Positions 3,488 through 53,094 of a stretch of DNA of 64,000 bases are shown piece after piece; positions within the stretch are counted from its first letter, which is position 1; each line of letters starts with the position of its first letter. The stretch covers positions 310,001 through 374,000 of the forward strand of contig NZ_JABEME010000002.1 of NCBI RefSeq assembly GCF_013004645.1, in the 5' to 3' direction. Both the position numbers and the translations under genes were made by a program. The DNA is from Stenotrophomonas africana. GTDB lineage: Bacteria > Pseudomonadota > Gammaproteobacteria > Xanthomonadales > Xanthomonadaceae. The notes beneath the pieces were generated by a model that worked only from the letters and a program-made list of their open reading frames with translations, had not been told where the DNA came from and did not search any database.

Positions 3488-4198
3488 ATGAAGAAGCTGC
3501 TGTTCTGTCTGCTGCCGTTGAGCGCGCTGCTGGCGCCGCCGGCGAATGCCAACCTCTCCATCCATCCGATGCGTGCGGCCGTCGATAGCAAACGCGGTAC
3601 GCAGATCCGCGTGTACTCGCACTCCACCCAGCCGCAGTACGTGCAGGCACGCCTGCTGCGCATCTCGAATCCCGCGCAGGTTGGCGAAGAAGAGGTGGAA
3701 ATGGAGGCGGCCGATGCCGCGGTCGCCATCACGCCTGGAAAGTTCGCACTCAGTGGTGGTGGCAATCGCCTGATCCGGGTCATTCCGCTGCGTACTGTCG
3801 AGAAGGAAGCGGCGTACCGAGTCTATTTCGAGGGAGTAAGGGGCCCGGATGGAACCCTTCTCGAAGATGAGGAACAGGCTGCCCAAGCCAACGTCGGCGT
3901 CAGCCTGGTCTGGGGTGCGTTGGTGAACGTGTTGCCCGCCAACGGAAGCGTGGATCTGCAACTGCAGGGAGACACCCTGCGTAACACCGGAACACTGCGC
4001 GTCGGCATCACTGGCGCGGCTGTCTGCACGGCCGAAGGTGTCTGCACCCCGCAGGACCTGTCGCGCAGCCTCTATCCCGATGCCGATCTGACCCTGCCTT
4101 TCCAGATTGCGCCCGGCGACTCACTGCAGCTTCGCTATCGATTGAGCCGCGATGGCCATCGAGAACACACACAGACCCTGGAAAGCAGCGTCAGCTGA
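3488..4198 (+). CDS. Fimbrial periplasmic chaperone (CooB/TcfB type)
   Basis: A 236-residue protein with a signal peptide (cleavage likely after Ala21, ANA-NLS). The N-terminal part has the immunoglobulin-like pattern of pilus chaperones (NLSIHPMRAAVDSKRGTQIR, then NRLIRVIPLRTVEKEAAYRV). Such chaperones cap pilin subunits in the periplasm and hand them to the usher. A ribosome site (CACGGAG) lies just before the start, 18 bases after the tip-subunit gene, so it is probably the last gene of the fimbrial operon. In classical CS1 operons the chaperone comes first, before the major pilin. A chaperone after the tip gene may be a second one specialised for the tip or minor subunits; the first would lie upstream of the window. 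Confidence 0.7.
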   Translation: MKKLLFCLLPLSALLAPPANANLSIHPMRAAVDSKRGTQIRVYSHSTQPQYVQARLLRISNPAQVGEEEVEMEAADAAVAITPGKFALSGGGNRLIRVIPLRTVEKEAAYRVYFEGVRGPDGTLLEDEEQAAQANVGVSLVWGALVNVLPANGSVDLQLQGDTLRNTGTLRVGITGAAVCTAEGVCTPQDLSRSLYPDADLTLPFQIAPGDSLQLRYRLSRDGHREHTQTLESSVS

Positions 4199-36148: not shown

Positions 36149-36336
36149 GGGAGCGTAGAGGGAGGGGCGGCGGGACACGCCGTGAACCCCGCTCCGCGGT
36201 CCGGCCCAGCCGCTGGCGGCTGTGCGTTCGGGCGCTTGCGAAGCAGTGCTTCGCAAGCAAAGCGCCCTCACCCCTGGGGGCTCGATGGCGCCATCCATGG
36301 CGCCAACGGTCCCGCCGCCCCTCCCTCTGCGCTCCC
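36149..36336 (-). repeat. Long structured element, copy 1 (minus orientation, with nested insert)
   Basis: A 28-bp outer stem: 36149-36176 pairs with 36309-36336 with only one G-T pair. Read on the minus strand, the core is TGGCGCCATGGATGGCGCCA, then the conserved GTTCACGGCGTGTCC-like end. The apical part of the second hairpin holds about 80 extra bases, including the nested hairpin CTTGCGAAGCAGTGCTTCGCAAG (near 36235-36257). With copy 2 it fills the gap 36093-36720, which has no gene. Confidence 0.8.
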
Positions 36337-36418: not shown

Positions 36419-36489
36419 ATTGCAGGCCACCAGTACGCCTCGAATGTACAGATTCTGCTTCTGCTTGAGCTGGCGCGCGCAGATGGGAA

Positions 36490-36595
36490 GGGTGGAGAGG
36501 GTGGGGGGGGCGGGACCGTTCGCCGCATGGATGCGGCGATCGAGCCTACAGGGACGTATTTACGGCGTGTCCCGATCACCTCACCCTCTCCGCCC
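36490..36595 (+). repeat. Long structured element, copy 2 (plus orientation)
   Basis: A 14-base outer stem, GGGTGGAGAGGGTG (36490-36503), pairs with CACCCTCTCCGCCC (36582-36595) with one mismatch. The core is CGCCGCATGGATGCGGCG, GATCGAGCC, then GGGAC-GTATTTACGGCGT-GTCCC. This is the weakest outer stem of the six copies. Confidence 0.75.
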
Positions 36596-36624
36596 AATTC
36601 CGGAAGCCGGTGCTTCTCGCACAA

Positions 36625-42796: not shown

Positions 42797-42899
42797 GGCC
42801 GGGCGGGGTGGGTTCGTGGGGGACGCCGCAAGTACGTCCTTTAGGCTTGGCAGCCGCATCCATGCGGCTGACACCCCCGCGAACCCACCCCGCCCGGCC
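42797..42899 (-). repeat. Long structured element, copy 3 (minus orientation)
   Basis: A 26-base outer stem (42797-42822 with 42874-42899) with a single G-T pair. On the minus strand the core is AGCCGCATGGATGCGGCT, GCCAAGCC, then GGACG-TACTTGCGG-CGTCC. It is bordered by CTGTCAGAGG on the outside of one arm and an AAAGC-repeat tract on the other. With copy 4 and a SMAG dimer it fills the gene-free gap 42728-43369. Confidence 0.85.
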
Positions 42900-42979
42900 T
42901 CTGACAGTTTCCGGTTGCGTCCACCCACGGAAGAGAAGAAAGAAGAGCAAAAGCAAAGCAGCTTCGCTGGGCGCTTCTT

Positions 42980-43045
42980 GTAGAGCCGAGCCCACGCTCG
43001 GCTGCTGCTCGCGGTAGACCCGGCCGAGCATGGGCTCGGCTCTAC
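42980..43045. repeat. SMAG/REP dimer between element copies 3 and 4
   Basis: GTAGAGCCGAGCCCACGCTCGGCTGC and the inverted partner ending GGCTCTAC, as in the dimers at 10043, 45202 and 60715. Confidence 0.9.
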
Positions 43046-43120
43046 ATTAGTTTTTCCGACACCAGAAACCGCTCTTGCTCCTGCCTTTGCCATCCGCTCC
43101 GCCTCATGAAACCTGTCGAG

Positions 43121-43224
43121 GCCGGGGCGGTGTGGGCTGGCAGGGGTGTGAGCCGCATGGACGCGGCGACCAAGCCCCCATGGACGGGTTTACGGCGTCC
43201 CCTGCCATCCCACAGCACCCCGGC
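43121..43224 (+). repeat. Long structured element, copy 4 (plus orientation)
   Basis: The outer stem 43121-43146 pairs with 43199-43224 (23 of 26 positions). The core is GCCGCATGGACGCGGC, GACCAAGCC, then GGACG-GGTTTACGG-CGTCC. It is preceded by CTGTCGAGGC, as in copy 6, and lies about 145 bases before pgk. Confidence 0.8.
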
Positions 43225-52480: not shown

Positions 52481-52567
52481 GGTGGGTCGAGCAGGGCTTG
52501 CAGCCCTGCACCTGCCGAATCAATGGCAAAAGCCGAAGCAACAGCAACAGCTGGCTTCCGTGGGGGC

Positions 52568-52665
52568 GGGGCGGTGTGGGCAGGCAGGACACGCCGTAAA
52601 CCCATCCCTGGGGGCTTGATGGCGCCATCCATGGCGCCAACGGTCCTGCCTGCCCACACCGCCCC
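52568..52665 (-). repeat. Long structured element, copy 5 (minus orientation)
   Basis: A perfect 23-bp outer stem (52568-52590 with 52643-52665). On the minus strand the core is TGGCGCCATGGATGGCGCCA, TCAAGCC, then a second hairpin ending TTTACGGCGTGTCC. It is bordered by CTGTCAGAGG and by a GAAGCAACAGCAACAG tract. The gap 52481-53094 has no gene; it holds copies 5 and 6, two REP monomers and one palindrome. Confidence 0.88.
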
Positions 52666-52692
52666 ACCTCTGACAGATTTCGATGGCTGTTG

Positions 52693-52741
52693 GTAGGTGT
52701 CGACCTTGGTCGACACGGTAGATCCACGCCATGCGTGGATG
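52693..52741 (+). repeat. Two tandem SMAG/REP monomers
   Basis: GTAGGTGTCGACCTTGGTCGACAC (52693-52716, whose stem starts inside the head) and GTAGATCCACGCCATGCGTGGATG (52718-52741), one base apart. Confidence 0.8.
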
Positions 52742-52768
52742 AAAGCTGTCAGATATCGAAATACATCT

Positions 52769-52809
52769 GGGGTCAGATCCGTTTTCCTTCGGAAAACGGA
52801 TCTGACCCC
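52769..52809. repeat. GGGGTC-type palindrome
   Basis: GGGGTCAGATCCGTTTTCC-TTC-GGAAAACGGATCTGACCCC, a perfect 19-bp stem with a 3-base loop. It shares only its ends with the copies at 26445 and 50289. Confidence 0.9.
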
Positions 52810-52844
52810 AAAGCCGTTCCAACAGACCGCAGGAAGCTGTCGAA

Positions 52845-52946
52845 GGCGGGGTGGGTCCGGTTGCGGGGGCGTGAGCCGCATGGATGCGGCGACCGAGCCT
52901 ACATGGACGTATTTACGGCGTCCCCCGCAACCGGACCCACCCCGCC
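52845..52946 (+). repeat. Long structured element, copy 6 (plus orientation), clearest copy
   Basis: A perfect 25-base outer stem (52845-52869 with 52922-52946). Hairpin 2 is GCCGCAT-GG-ATGCGGC (52875-52890). Hairpin 3 is GGACG-TATTTACGG-CGTCC (52905-52923), which abuts the returning outer strand. It is preceded by CTGTCGAAGG and followed by GGAAGCCCGCTTTTGCTTCG and a GCTGTT repeat tract. Confidence 0.9.
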
Positions 52947-53094
52947 TACCCACAGGAAGCCCGCTTTTGCTTCGGCTGTTGCTGTTGCTGTTGCTCCAGC
53001 TCGCAGCGGGTGCAGGGCGCAGCCCTGCCGATAAACCCCCTCCTGCGACGGTTCGTCGCACGGGTAACCCTGGACCCGGCTCTACACTAGCGGG

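What the first reader, a model, noticed from the sequence alone, without database searches (positions are those of the whole stretch)
52845..52946. Six-copy family of long structured elements with a conserved core and covarying stems
Six sequences (36149-36336, 36490-36595, 42797-42899, 43121-43224, 52568-52665, 52845-52946) share, in element orientation, a core close to GCCGCATGGATGCGGC, a GAYCRAGCC linker, GGACG-TATTTACGG-CGTCC. Each is closed by an outer stem of 14-28 bases. The outer stems differ in sequence but still pair: perfectly in copies 5 and 6, with one G-T pair in copies 1 and 3. The outermost pair of hairpin 2 changes as T-A, C-G or A-T between copies. That pattern points to selection on a fold, in DNA (REP-like cruciform) or RNA (three-way junction). 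I do not recognise a published name; it is not the SMAG consensus.
Basis: partly seen in the sequence, partly recalled or inferred. Interest (0 to 1): 0.82.

Follow-up and report, generated by a model that had tools for sequence, protein, structure and literature searches.

The report
Dispersed CsrA-type double-hairpin RNA element
This bacterium carries more than a hundred scattered copies of a folded element that, as RNA, would show two docking sites of the kind bound by the global regulator CsrA, which makes it a candidate set of decoys for that regulator.

Summary
A covariance model finds all six copies and 118 at E<=2e-6 in the draft genome, whose nearest named matches are Stenotrophomonas maltophilia-complex. 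The fold is a three-way junction: an outer stem of about 25 bp, variable in sequence but paired, and two short hairpins. Covariation is strong. That is the CsrA/RsmA site. G-U pairs outnumber A-C mismatches 66 to 12, pointing to RNA from the GGA strand. Relatives occur in 74 of 369 genomes of the class. 33 of 34 close couples stand 5'-to-5'. No element lies near 73 RAYT loci examined. The nearest known family, Rfam TwoAYGGAY (already predicted to bind CsrA), matches here only below its cut-off. Verdict: a dispersed, high-copy variant of the TwoAYGGAY kind, probably a CsrA/RsmA decoy. Binding and transcription are untested, copies show no sense bias toward neighbouring genes, and energy folding of single copies does not always give hairpin 2.

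The parts
52842..52949 (+). Copy 6 (focal): complete element
   Evidence: R1 hit 119.6 bits, E 2.6e-23, copy was in the model's alignment; RNA fold z -10.2
52845..52869 (+). Copy 6, outer stem 5' arm (25 bp)
   Evidence: pairs with 52922-52946; 22 of 26 helix-1 pairs have compensatory changes in 31 copies
52922..52946 (+). Copy 6, outer stem 3' arm
   Evidence: as above
52871..52894 (+). Copy 6, hairpin 1; loop ATGGAT at 52880-52885, closed by C-G (CATGGATG)
   Evidence: 6 of 8 pairs with compensatory changes; CANGGANG in 82 of 83 own copies
52897..52919 (+). Copy 6, hairpin 2 with 5-nt 3' bulge; loop ATGGAC at 52903-52908, closed by C-G (CATGGACG)
   Evidence: upper-stem pairs T-A/C-G 15:16 and A-T/C-G 11:20; CANGGANG in 82 of 83 own copies; not the minimum-energy pairing of this copy
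52563..52670 (-). Copy 5, coupled 5'-to-5' with copy 6
   Evidence: R1 116.9 bits
43119..43226 (+). Copy 4
   Evidence: R1 97.4 bits
42795..42901 (-). Copy 3, coupled 5'-to-5' with copy 4; one base missing in hairpin 2
   Evidence: R1 100.3 bits; alignment
36489..36596 (+). Copy 2
   Evidence: R1 101.7 bits
36149..36336 (-). Copy 1, coupled 5'-to-5' with copy 2; about 80 bases inserted in hairpin 2
   Evidence: R1 75.3 bits; alignment

Best explanation
Each copy encodes a structured RNA module of about 104 nt on the strand that carries the GGA loops: a long outer duplex presents, at a three-way junction, two small hairpins with ANGGAN loops closed by C-G, with 20 nt between the two GGAs, a spacing that one CsrA/RsmA dimer can bridge. 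SHOWN HERE: the fold by covariation, the near-invariance of both CANGGANG loops with free N positions, the strand asymmetry, the copy number, the 5'-to-5' couples and the spread through the class. INFERRED: transcripts that run through the intergenic regions carry the module, CsrA binds it, and the many copies together act as decoys (or as 3'-end regulatory sites) that lower free CsrA; the long outer stem may shield the module or let RNase III release it. Couples in opposite orientation would give one GGA-sense copy to transcripts from either side.
For: Covariation: 31 of 40 pairs with compensatory changes in 31 own copies, score 0.655 against 0.170 shuffled; 36 of 40 in 32 distinct copies from six other genomes, 0.835 against 0.193; 19 of 24 in 31 copies from 28 class-wide loci, 0.653 against 0.160. 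Loops: both hairpins CANGGANG in 81 of 83 own copies, 26 of 32 (A3), 28 of 31 (A6); N2 takes all four bases in both loops, N6 all four in hairpin 2. Published CsrA features: SELEX consensus RUACARGGAUGU, mostly six-base loops, bridging of sites 10-63 nt apart with an optimum above 18 nt (passages of PMC7652899). RNA strand: G-U 66 versus A-C 12 cells in 83 own copies; 22:7, 40:5 and 7:1 in A2, A3 and A6. Outer stem of 22-38 bp, mostly of unrelated sequence, in 27 of 28 class-wide loci. csrA present in 69 of 74 element-bearing genomes against 244 of 295 others, one-sided p=0.014; in nearly complete genomes 60 of 61 against 220 of 253, p=0.004. Precedent: TwoAYGGAY was predicted to bind CsrA from the same loop motif (PMC4333381 passages); RsmU, processed from a 3'-UTR, is an RsmA-binding sRNA of Xanthomonas (PMC7694677 passages).
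Against: No transcript or binding was measured. Energy folding of single copies does not always give hairpin 2: in copy 6 the minimum-energy fold pairs GGACG with CGUCC, which would hide the second GGA, and copies 2, 3 and 4 do not show hairpin 2 as modelled either. The third pair of the lower stem of hairpin 2 (cols 61-102 of A3) fails in 19 of 32 copies, and in A6 the count of further pair types does not exceed shuffles (162 of 500 reach it). Of 36 single copies with gene context, those between co-directional genes lie sense in 8 and antisense in 12, so a simple cis 3'-UTR role is not supported; class-wide, by crude gene calls, the neighbour at the 3' end points toward the element in 17 of 19 usable loci, i.e. 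that gene's own transcript would carry the complement. I saw no conserved promoter in the 5' flank (by eye only). One nearly complete element-bearing genome (G259) has no csrA match, and four incomplete ones. R1 has no hit at E<=1e-5 in 9 of 37 genus genomes and 20 of 24 others of the order, so the element is dispensable. Hairpin 1 is longer than most SELEX ligands, which had four or fewer contiguous pairs. Several copies have lost a GGA.
Confidence: 0.62

Rival explanations
1. REP/REPIN- or MITE-like selfish DNA: an inverted couple mobilised as DNA, with folding needed only for transposition (single-stranded hairpins) and no host function.
For: 118 copies at E<=2e-6, some sharing arms at different sites; 5'-to-5' couples in 33 of 34, as REP dimers lie in opposite orientation; intergenic (none of 92 inside a called gene, one overlapping a gene end); patchy within the genus; S. 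maltophilia is reported to hold two TIR repeat families linked to RAYT-like genes, one self-complementary and found at short distance (PMC3733652 passages; its figure with the sequences is not held, so identity with this family is not excluded).
Against: No element within about 1.5-2.5 kb of 73 of 115 PF01797 hits, 60 of the 73 in genomes known to carry at least 12 elements, all 3 of the own genome included. Elements stand at the site of copies 5/6 in 15 Stenotrophomonas-type and 6 Xanthomonas loci of 80 fetched. CANGGANG with free N positions and the G-U excess on one strand are not expected from a two-stranded cruciform, though a one-strand DNA hairpin could also favour G-T over A-C.
Confidence: 0.18
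2. Strand-symmetric 3'-end element: a very stable hairpin at gene ends that blocks exonucleases or aids termination in both directions; the loops are incidental.
For: Enriched between convergent genes, about 22 of 64 element regions against 31 of 249 others by my gene calls, p=1e-4, rare between divergent genes; predicted fold of copy 6 about -82 kcal/mol on either strand.
Against: No U-tract after the stem in own copies (by eye); strand asymmetry of G-U and loop conservation are unexplained.
Confidence: 0.15
3. Single-stranded DNA hairpin serving as a recombination or insertion target (attC-like).
For: Foreign hairpin-rich DNA found inside hairpin 1 in L016, L017 and L263; modular exchange of arms and hairpins between copies at one site.
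Against: Such inserts were seen in three copies only; I did not search for a linked recombinase other than PF01797; conservation of ANGGAN is not a feature of attC sites (recalled).
Confidence: 0.05

Closest known systems
TwoAYGGAY RNA (Rfam RF01731, clan CL00106)
   Same: Outer stem closing a junction with two hairpins whose loops are C-ANGGAN-G (consensus printed); multi-copy; of the couples under 1 kb that I can read in the capped listing, six are - + (two in G332, one each in G425, G222, G326, G400) and one is + + (G154); predicted to bind CsrA (PMC4333381).
   Different: RF01731 hairpin 2 is a 15-bp uninterrupted stem joined by one base to hairpin 1; here hairpin 2 is 3+3 bp with a 5-nt bulge (mostly TTYAC). 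Own copies score at most 33.6 bits against a cut-off of 43; reciprocally R2 scores six RF01731 loci at most 28.1 bits, against 64.6-91.3 for the 31 class-wide matches.
CsrB/CsrC, RsmX/Y/Z sRNAs
   Same: GGA hairpin loops that titrate CsrA/RsmA.
   Different: Those are dedicated sRNA genes with several GGAs each (recalled); here two sites per module and 118 dispersed copies. RF00166 (RsmZ) has no match over its cut-off in the own genome, best 25.4 of 44 bits; the other families were not searched genome-wide.
RsmU (Xanthomonas 3'-UTR-derived RsmA-binding sRNA)
   Same: Intergenic 3'-end origin, GGA motifs, related bacteria.
   Different: Reported as one locus conserved only in Xanthomonas (PMC7694677 passages); sequences not compared here.
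REP/SMAG and REPIN repeats
   Same: Palindromic, intergenic, high copy, inverted couples.
   Different: REPs are 20-40 bp, mostly with a GTAG or CGTC tag, GTAG ones thought to be moved by RAYTs (PMC3733652 abstract); this is about 104 bp with a conserved internal core, and no RAYT linkage was found.

Membership tests
TwoAYGGAY (RF01731) | Score at or above the curated gathering score (43 bits) | tested here: not met
   Window: 0 matches; own genome best 33.6 bits, six matches at E<=10.
TwoAYGGAY (RF01731) | Two hairpins with AYGGAY-type loops inside an outer stem | tested here: met
   Both loops CANGGANG in 81 of 83 own copies; outer stem. N2 is also G or A, so the looser ANGGAN.
TwoAYGGAY (RF01731) | Long uninterrupted hairpin 2 (15 bp in the Rfam consensus) | tested here: not met
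   Hairpin 2 is 3+3 bp with a 5-nt bulge; Rfam consensus printed.
CsrA/RsmA-binding RNA | GGA in hairpin loops, sites 10-63 nt apart | tested here: met
   Sequence and covarying fold only; criteria from PMC7652899. Minimum-energy folds of single copies do not all agree.
CsrA/RsmA-binding RNA | Physical binding to CsrA | not testable with these tools
   No binding data.
CsrA/RsmA-binding RNA | Host encodes CsrA | tested here: met
   1 csrA match in the own genome; 69 of 74 element-bearing class genomes, 5 without.
REP / REPIN | 20-40 bp palindrome with GTAG or CGTC terminal tag | tested here: not met
   About 104 bp, no such tag at the ends by eye.
REP / REPIN | Linked RAYT transposase gene | tested here: not met
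   0 elements at 73 of 115 PF01797 hits; 42 hits not examined.
SMAG | Consensus GTAGTGCCGGCCGCTGGCCGGCA | tested here: not met
   Consensus from PMC2613905; no resemblance to the core in A2, by eye.
S. maltophilia TIR repeats of TIRYT ORF 1152 | Repeat sequence of the figure in PMC3733652 | not testable with these tools
   Figures not held; only the description 'self-complementary', 'at short distance' was read.

The most novel reading that the evidence does not exclude
A distributed CsrA/RsmA sponge: in the Stenotrophomonas/Xanthomonas line, where RsmX/Y/Z-type sRNAs have not been found in Xanthomonas, more than a hundred dispersed two-site RNA modules at gene ends together set the level of free CsrA, so that overall read-through or antisense transcription of the genome is sensed through CsrA titration, with inverted couples giving a sense copy in either direction of transcription.
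Probability: 0.28. Interest if true: 0.87.

Novelty: new variant of a known kind. Interest (0 to 1): 0.66.

Why it matters
The circuit that antagonises CsrA/RsmA in Xanthomonadaceae is poorly known: a published BLAST search found no CsrB/C or RsmV/W/X/Y/Z homologue in any sequenced Xanthomonas (PMC7694677). A family with two near-perfect CsrA sites per copy, over 100 copies in this genome and relatives in 74 of 369 sampled genomes of the class is a ready, testable candidate. It would also mean that some repeats that look like REP-type DNA are RNA regulators, and that repeat copy number can tune a global regulator.

Tried and rejected
RAYT linkage: not found at 73 of 115 PF01797 hits. Plasmid and phage carriage, with copy 6 as the only query: no blastn match at E<=1e-5 in either collection; an exact pattern gave 5 contigs in viral contigs, not followed. 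The microRNA matches of cmscan at loose thresholds are all below their gathering scores and look like long-hairpin artefacts. Extra GGA motifs in the flanks: 57 of 84 5' flanks and 49 of 84 3' flanks have GGA within 30 nt (shuffle means 32 and 24), but TCC is also above its shuffle mean in the 5' flank (46 against 35) and most flank GGAs fold as paired, so I do not rely on it. Sense orientation to neighbouring genes: no bias (8 to 12, p=0.50). RF00166 in the own genome: nothing over cut-off. Outside the class: 32 of 398 phylum genomes matched at E<=1e-4, all of the own class or nearer; how many of the 398 lie outside the class is not visible in the listing.

Full report
WHAT IS THERE. The window is G000:C12:310001-374000 of a 4.57-Mb draft in 29 contigs. 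A protein encoded next to copies 5 and 6 (a LysR-type regulator) has its best matches, 96-99% identity, in Stenotrophomonas maltophilia-complex records (the source record itself may be left out there). A core pattern with up to one mismatch occurs at 56 places in the genome against 1 for the reversed pattern. I aligned 31 copies (A2: ungapped, 108 columns); they had to pass a filter of at least 20 of 26 outer pairs, G-T allowed, so A2 leans slightly toward paired arms. In the similar scan, 30 of 35 stretches passed. Model R1 built from A2 finds 126 places at E<=0.01 and 118 at E<=2e-6 in the genome; only 150 of 4802 first-look candidates were scored, so this may be an undercount. All six reported copies are among the window's hits, four of them part of A2.

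THE FOLD. Outer stem: columns 4-28 with 81-105 plus 29-79; 22 of these 26 pairs have compensatory changes and 97.4% of cells pair. In 30 copies with paired arms, pairing is 93% at position 1, 57% at position 0 and at most 63% at any position beyond. Hairpin 1: columns 30-38 with 45-53, 6 of 8 pairs compensatory. Hairpin 2: 56-58 with 76-78 and 59-61 with 68-70, separated by a 5-nt bulge; 3 of 6 pairs compensatory, all cells paired. Whole structure: covariation score 0.655, shuffled mean 0.170, slid versions at most 0.119. The structure survives outside the genus: 36 of 40 pairs compensatory in 32 distinct copies from six other genomes, two of them of the same genus, though the pair corresponding to 58-76 fails in 19 of 32; and 19 of 24 in 31 copies from 28 class-wide loci, where one measure, further pair types, does not exceed shuffles. 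A3 and A6 were fitted to the models, which favours the structure; A2 was not. Outward from the junction, and allowing single mismatches, the stem extends 22-38 bp in 27 of 28 class-wide loci and 9 in one, mostly with unrelated sequences.

THE LOOPS. In 83 distinct own copies (those of the 126 hits that are exactly 108 long and have enough flank in fetched loci) hairpin 1 is CANGGANG in 82, hairpin 2 in 82, both in 81. In A3 both match in 26 of 32; four of the six exceptions have a five-base AGGAN loop in hairpin 1. In A6 both match in 28 of 31. Pooled, the first N of hairpin 2 is G 65, T 53, A 15, C 8 and the last N is C 81, T 51, G 5, A 4. So constraint falls on C-A-x-G-G-A-x-G and less on x. 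That is the CsrA/RsmA signature: SELEX consensus RUACARGGAUGU, ACA and GGA fully conserved, six-base loops in 44 of 55 ligands, and dimers bridging two sites 10-63 nt apart with an optimum above 18 nt (passages of PMC7652899; PMC4066749). Here 20 nt separate the two GGAs, and the T-A variant of hairpin 2, UACAGGGACGU, is close to the SELEX consensus. Copy 3 of the window lacks the closing C of hairpin 2, copy 1 has an insert there, and orthologues in L254, L258, L259 and L314 have a changed GGA, so some copies are decayed.

WHICH STRAND, DNA OR RNA. Reading the GGA strand, G-U cells outnumber A-C cells 66 to 12 in the 83 own copies (29 to 10 distinct column types), 22:7 in A2, 40:5 in A3, 7:1 in A6 (pair 29-79, always G-U or C-G in A2, left out). 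All but A2 were picked by a model that itself scores G-U above A-C, a mild bias. A two-stranded cruciform should give equal numbers and RNA from the other strand the reverse. A fold of this strand as RNA is the simplest reading; a hairpin of the same strand as single-stranded DNA is not excluded.

ARRANGEMENT. Of 34 adjacent couples closer than 1 kb, weak hits included, 33 are - then + (5' ends facing), one is - -, none + + or + -. Of 92 copies with gene context by my own codon-usage gene calls, none lies inside a gene and one overlaps a gene end by 69 bases. Oriented on the element, the 36 single copies have neighbours + - in 13, - - in 12, + + in 8, - + in 3. Element-bearing regions are enriched between convergent genes (about 22 of 64 against 31 of 249 others in the fetched loci, p=1e-4). 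Between co-directional genes there is no sense bias (8:12). In other lineages, with cruder calls on 27 loci, 19 have usable neighbours: - - 9, + - 8, + + 2; 7 were called inside an ORF and 1 undecided. So the gene abutting the element's 3' end usually points toward it. This is the main difficulty for a cis 3'-UTR role: the abutting gene's transcript carries the complement first, and a GGA-sense transcript must come from the other side or from a promoter I did not find. Couples do put one GGA-sense copy on either strand. In G605 six copies stand in a tandem array of 227-bp units, all on one strand, which would place twelve CsrA-type sites in one transcript.

SPREAD AND HISTORY. R1 finds the element in 32 of 61 genomes at E<=1e-5: 28 of 37 of the genus and 4 of 24 others of the order, in three genera of two families. 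R2 (core, 70 positions) finds it in 74 of 369 genomes of the class, own genome and one congener included, 65 of 271 genera, and in 32 of 398 of the phylum, all in the own class or nearer. csrA (PF02599) is found in 69 of these 74 and in 244 of the other 295 (p=0.014); among nearly complete genomes 60 of 61 against 220 of 253 (p=0.004). Genomes without a csrA match include small and incomplete ones, and relatedness is not controlled, so this is supportive and no more. At the site of copies 5 and 6, 21 of 80 named loci have R1 hits: 15 of Stenotrophomonas type and 6 of Xanthomonas. Most that show two have the - + order; L308 has + - and L297 and L311 have - - (Xanthomonas). The S. rhizophila-type loci fetched have none. 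Orthologous copies exchange arms, hairpin 1 and hairpin 2 as modules. No plasmid or phage record matched copy 6 by blastn.

TRANSPOSASE LINK. REP dimers also lie close in opposite orientation (PMC3733652 abstract), and that paper reports two TIR repeat families in S. maltophilia tied to RAYT-like genes, one self-complementary and close-set (passages). I therefore tested linkage: 33 PF01797 loci, the own genome's three among them, and 40 more contain no element; 60 of the 73 are in genomes known to carry at least 12 elements, 42 of the 115 hits were not examined. The figure with the TIR sequences is not held, so I cannot say by sequence that those TIRs are something else.

RELATION TO WHAT IS KNOWN. 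Nothing in the window reaches an Rfam gathering score. RF01731 TwoAYGGAY has six own-genome matches at E<=10, all lying on R1 hits, at 33.6 bits or less against 43, and six RF01731 loci score at most 28.1 bits with R2. RF01731 is over its cut-off in 15 of 369 class genomes (30 at E<=0.01) against 74 with R2 at E<=0.001. Its consensus has the same topology but a long, unbroken hairpin 2, and its hits often come in - + couples too (six, with one + +). Weinberg et al. 2010 listed TwoAYGGAY from human gut, gamma-Proteobacteria and Clostridiales (one table passage), and the RMfam paper predicted that it binds CsrA (passages). I therefore file the element as a sister variant, not a member. None of six probe words from its core occurs in a held paper, and my other searches returned nothing that describes it, as far as their listings show. 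Most subscription papers are not in that library.

MECHANISM. Shown: a conserved fold with two CsrA-type loops and RNA-like strand asymmetry, high copy, couples. Inferred: transcription, CsrA binding, decoy action, and a shielding or RNase III-release role for the long stem (from its length, not tested). I put 0.62 on a CsrA-binding RNA that acts mainly by titration or as a 3'-end CsrA site, and 0.28 on the stronger claim of a distributed sponge that sets free CsrA.

Noticed in passing
L016 and L017 beside the core at about 1500; L263 about 3630-3730: Foreign hairpin-rich DNA (shared end with GTGTGCGC...GCGCACAC, AGGA in the loop) stands inside hairpin 1 of an element in the own genome (two copies) and, roughly 95 bases long, in S. 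maltophilia LMG 978: perhaps a second small element that targets this hairpin.
   Followed up: no
window about 36190-36272: Copy 1 carries an insert of about 80 bases with its own palindrome (GCTTGCGAAGCACTGCTTCGCAAGC) in hairpin 2.
   Followed up: no
L103 and L106 (genomes G042, G052): RF01731 TwoAYGGAY copies, some over cut-off, lie on both sides of the RNase P RNA gene rnpB.
   Followed up: no
L366 2288-3652 (G605): Tandem array of six 227-bp units, one element per unit, all on one strand.
   Followed up: partly
window 42979-43046 and 52690-52811: SMAG/GTAG-like palindromes and a perfect 20-bp palindrome (TGGGGTCAGATCCGTTTTCC) lie between the coupled copies; similar modules recur in gaps of other couples.
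   Followed up: partly
contig ends of G000 (e.g. C1, C5, C6, C7, C8, C17, C20, C21, C29): Many contigs of the draft begin or end inside an element (with contig lengths), so the repeat breaks assemblies.
   Followed up: no
L276: A contig labelled Bacillus subtilis SK7B5 carries an 89% identical Stenotrophomonas-type protein: probably a contaminated or mislabelled assembly.
   Followed up: no
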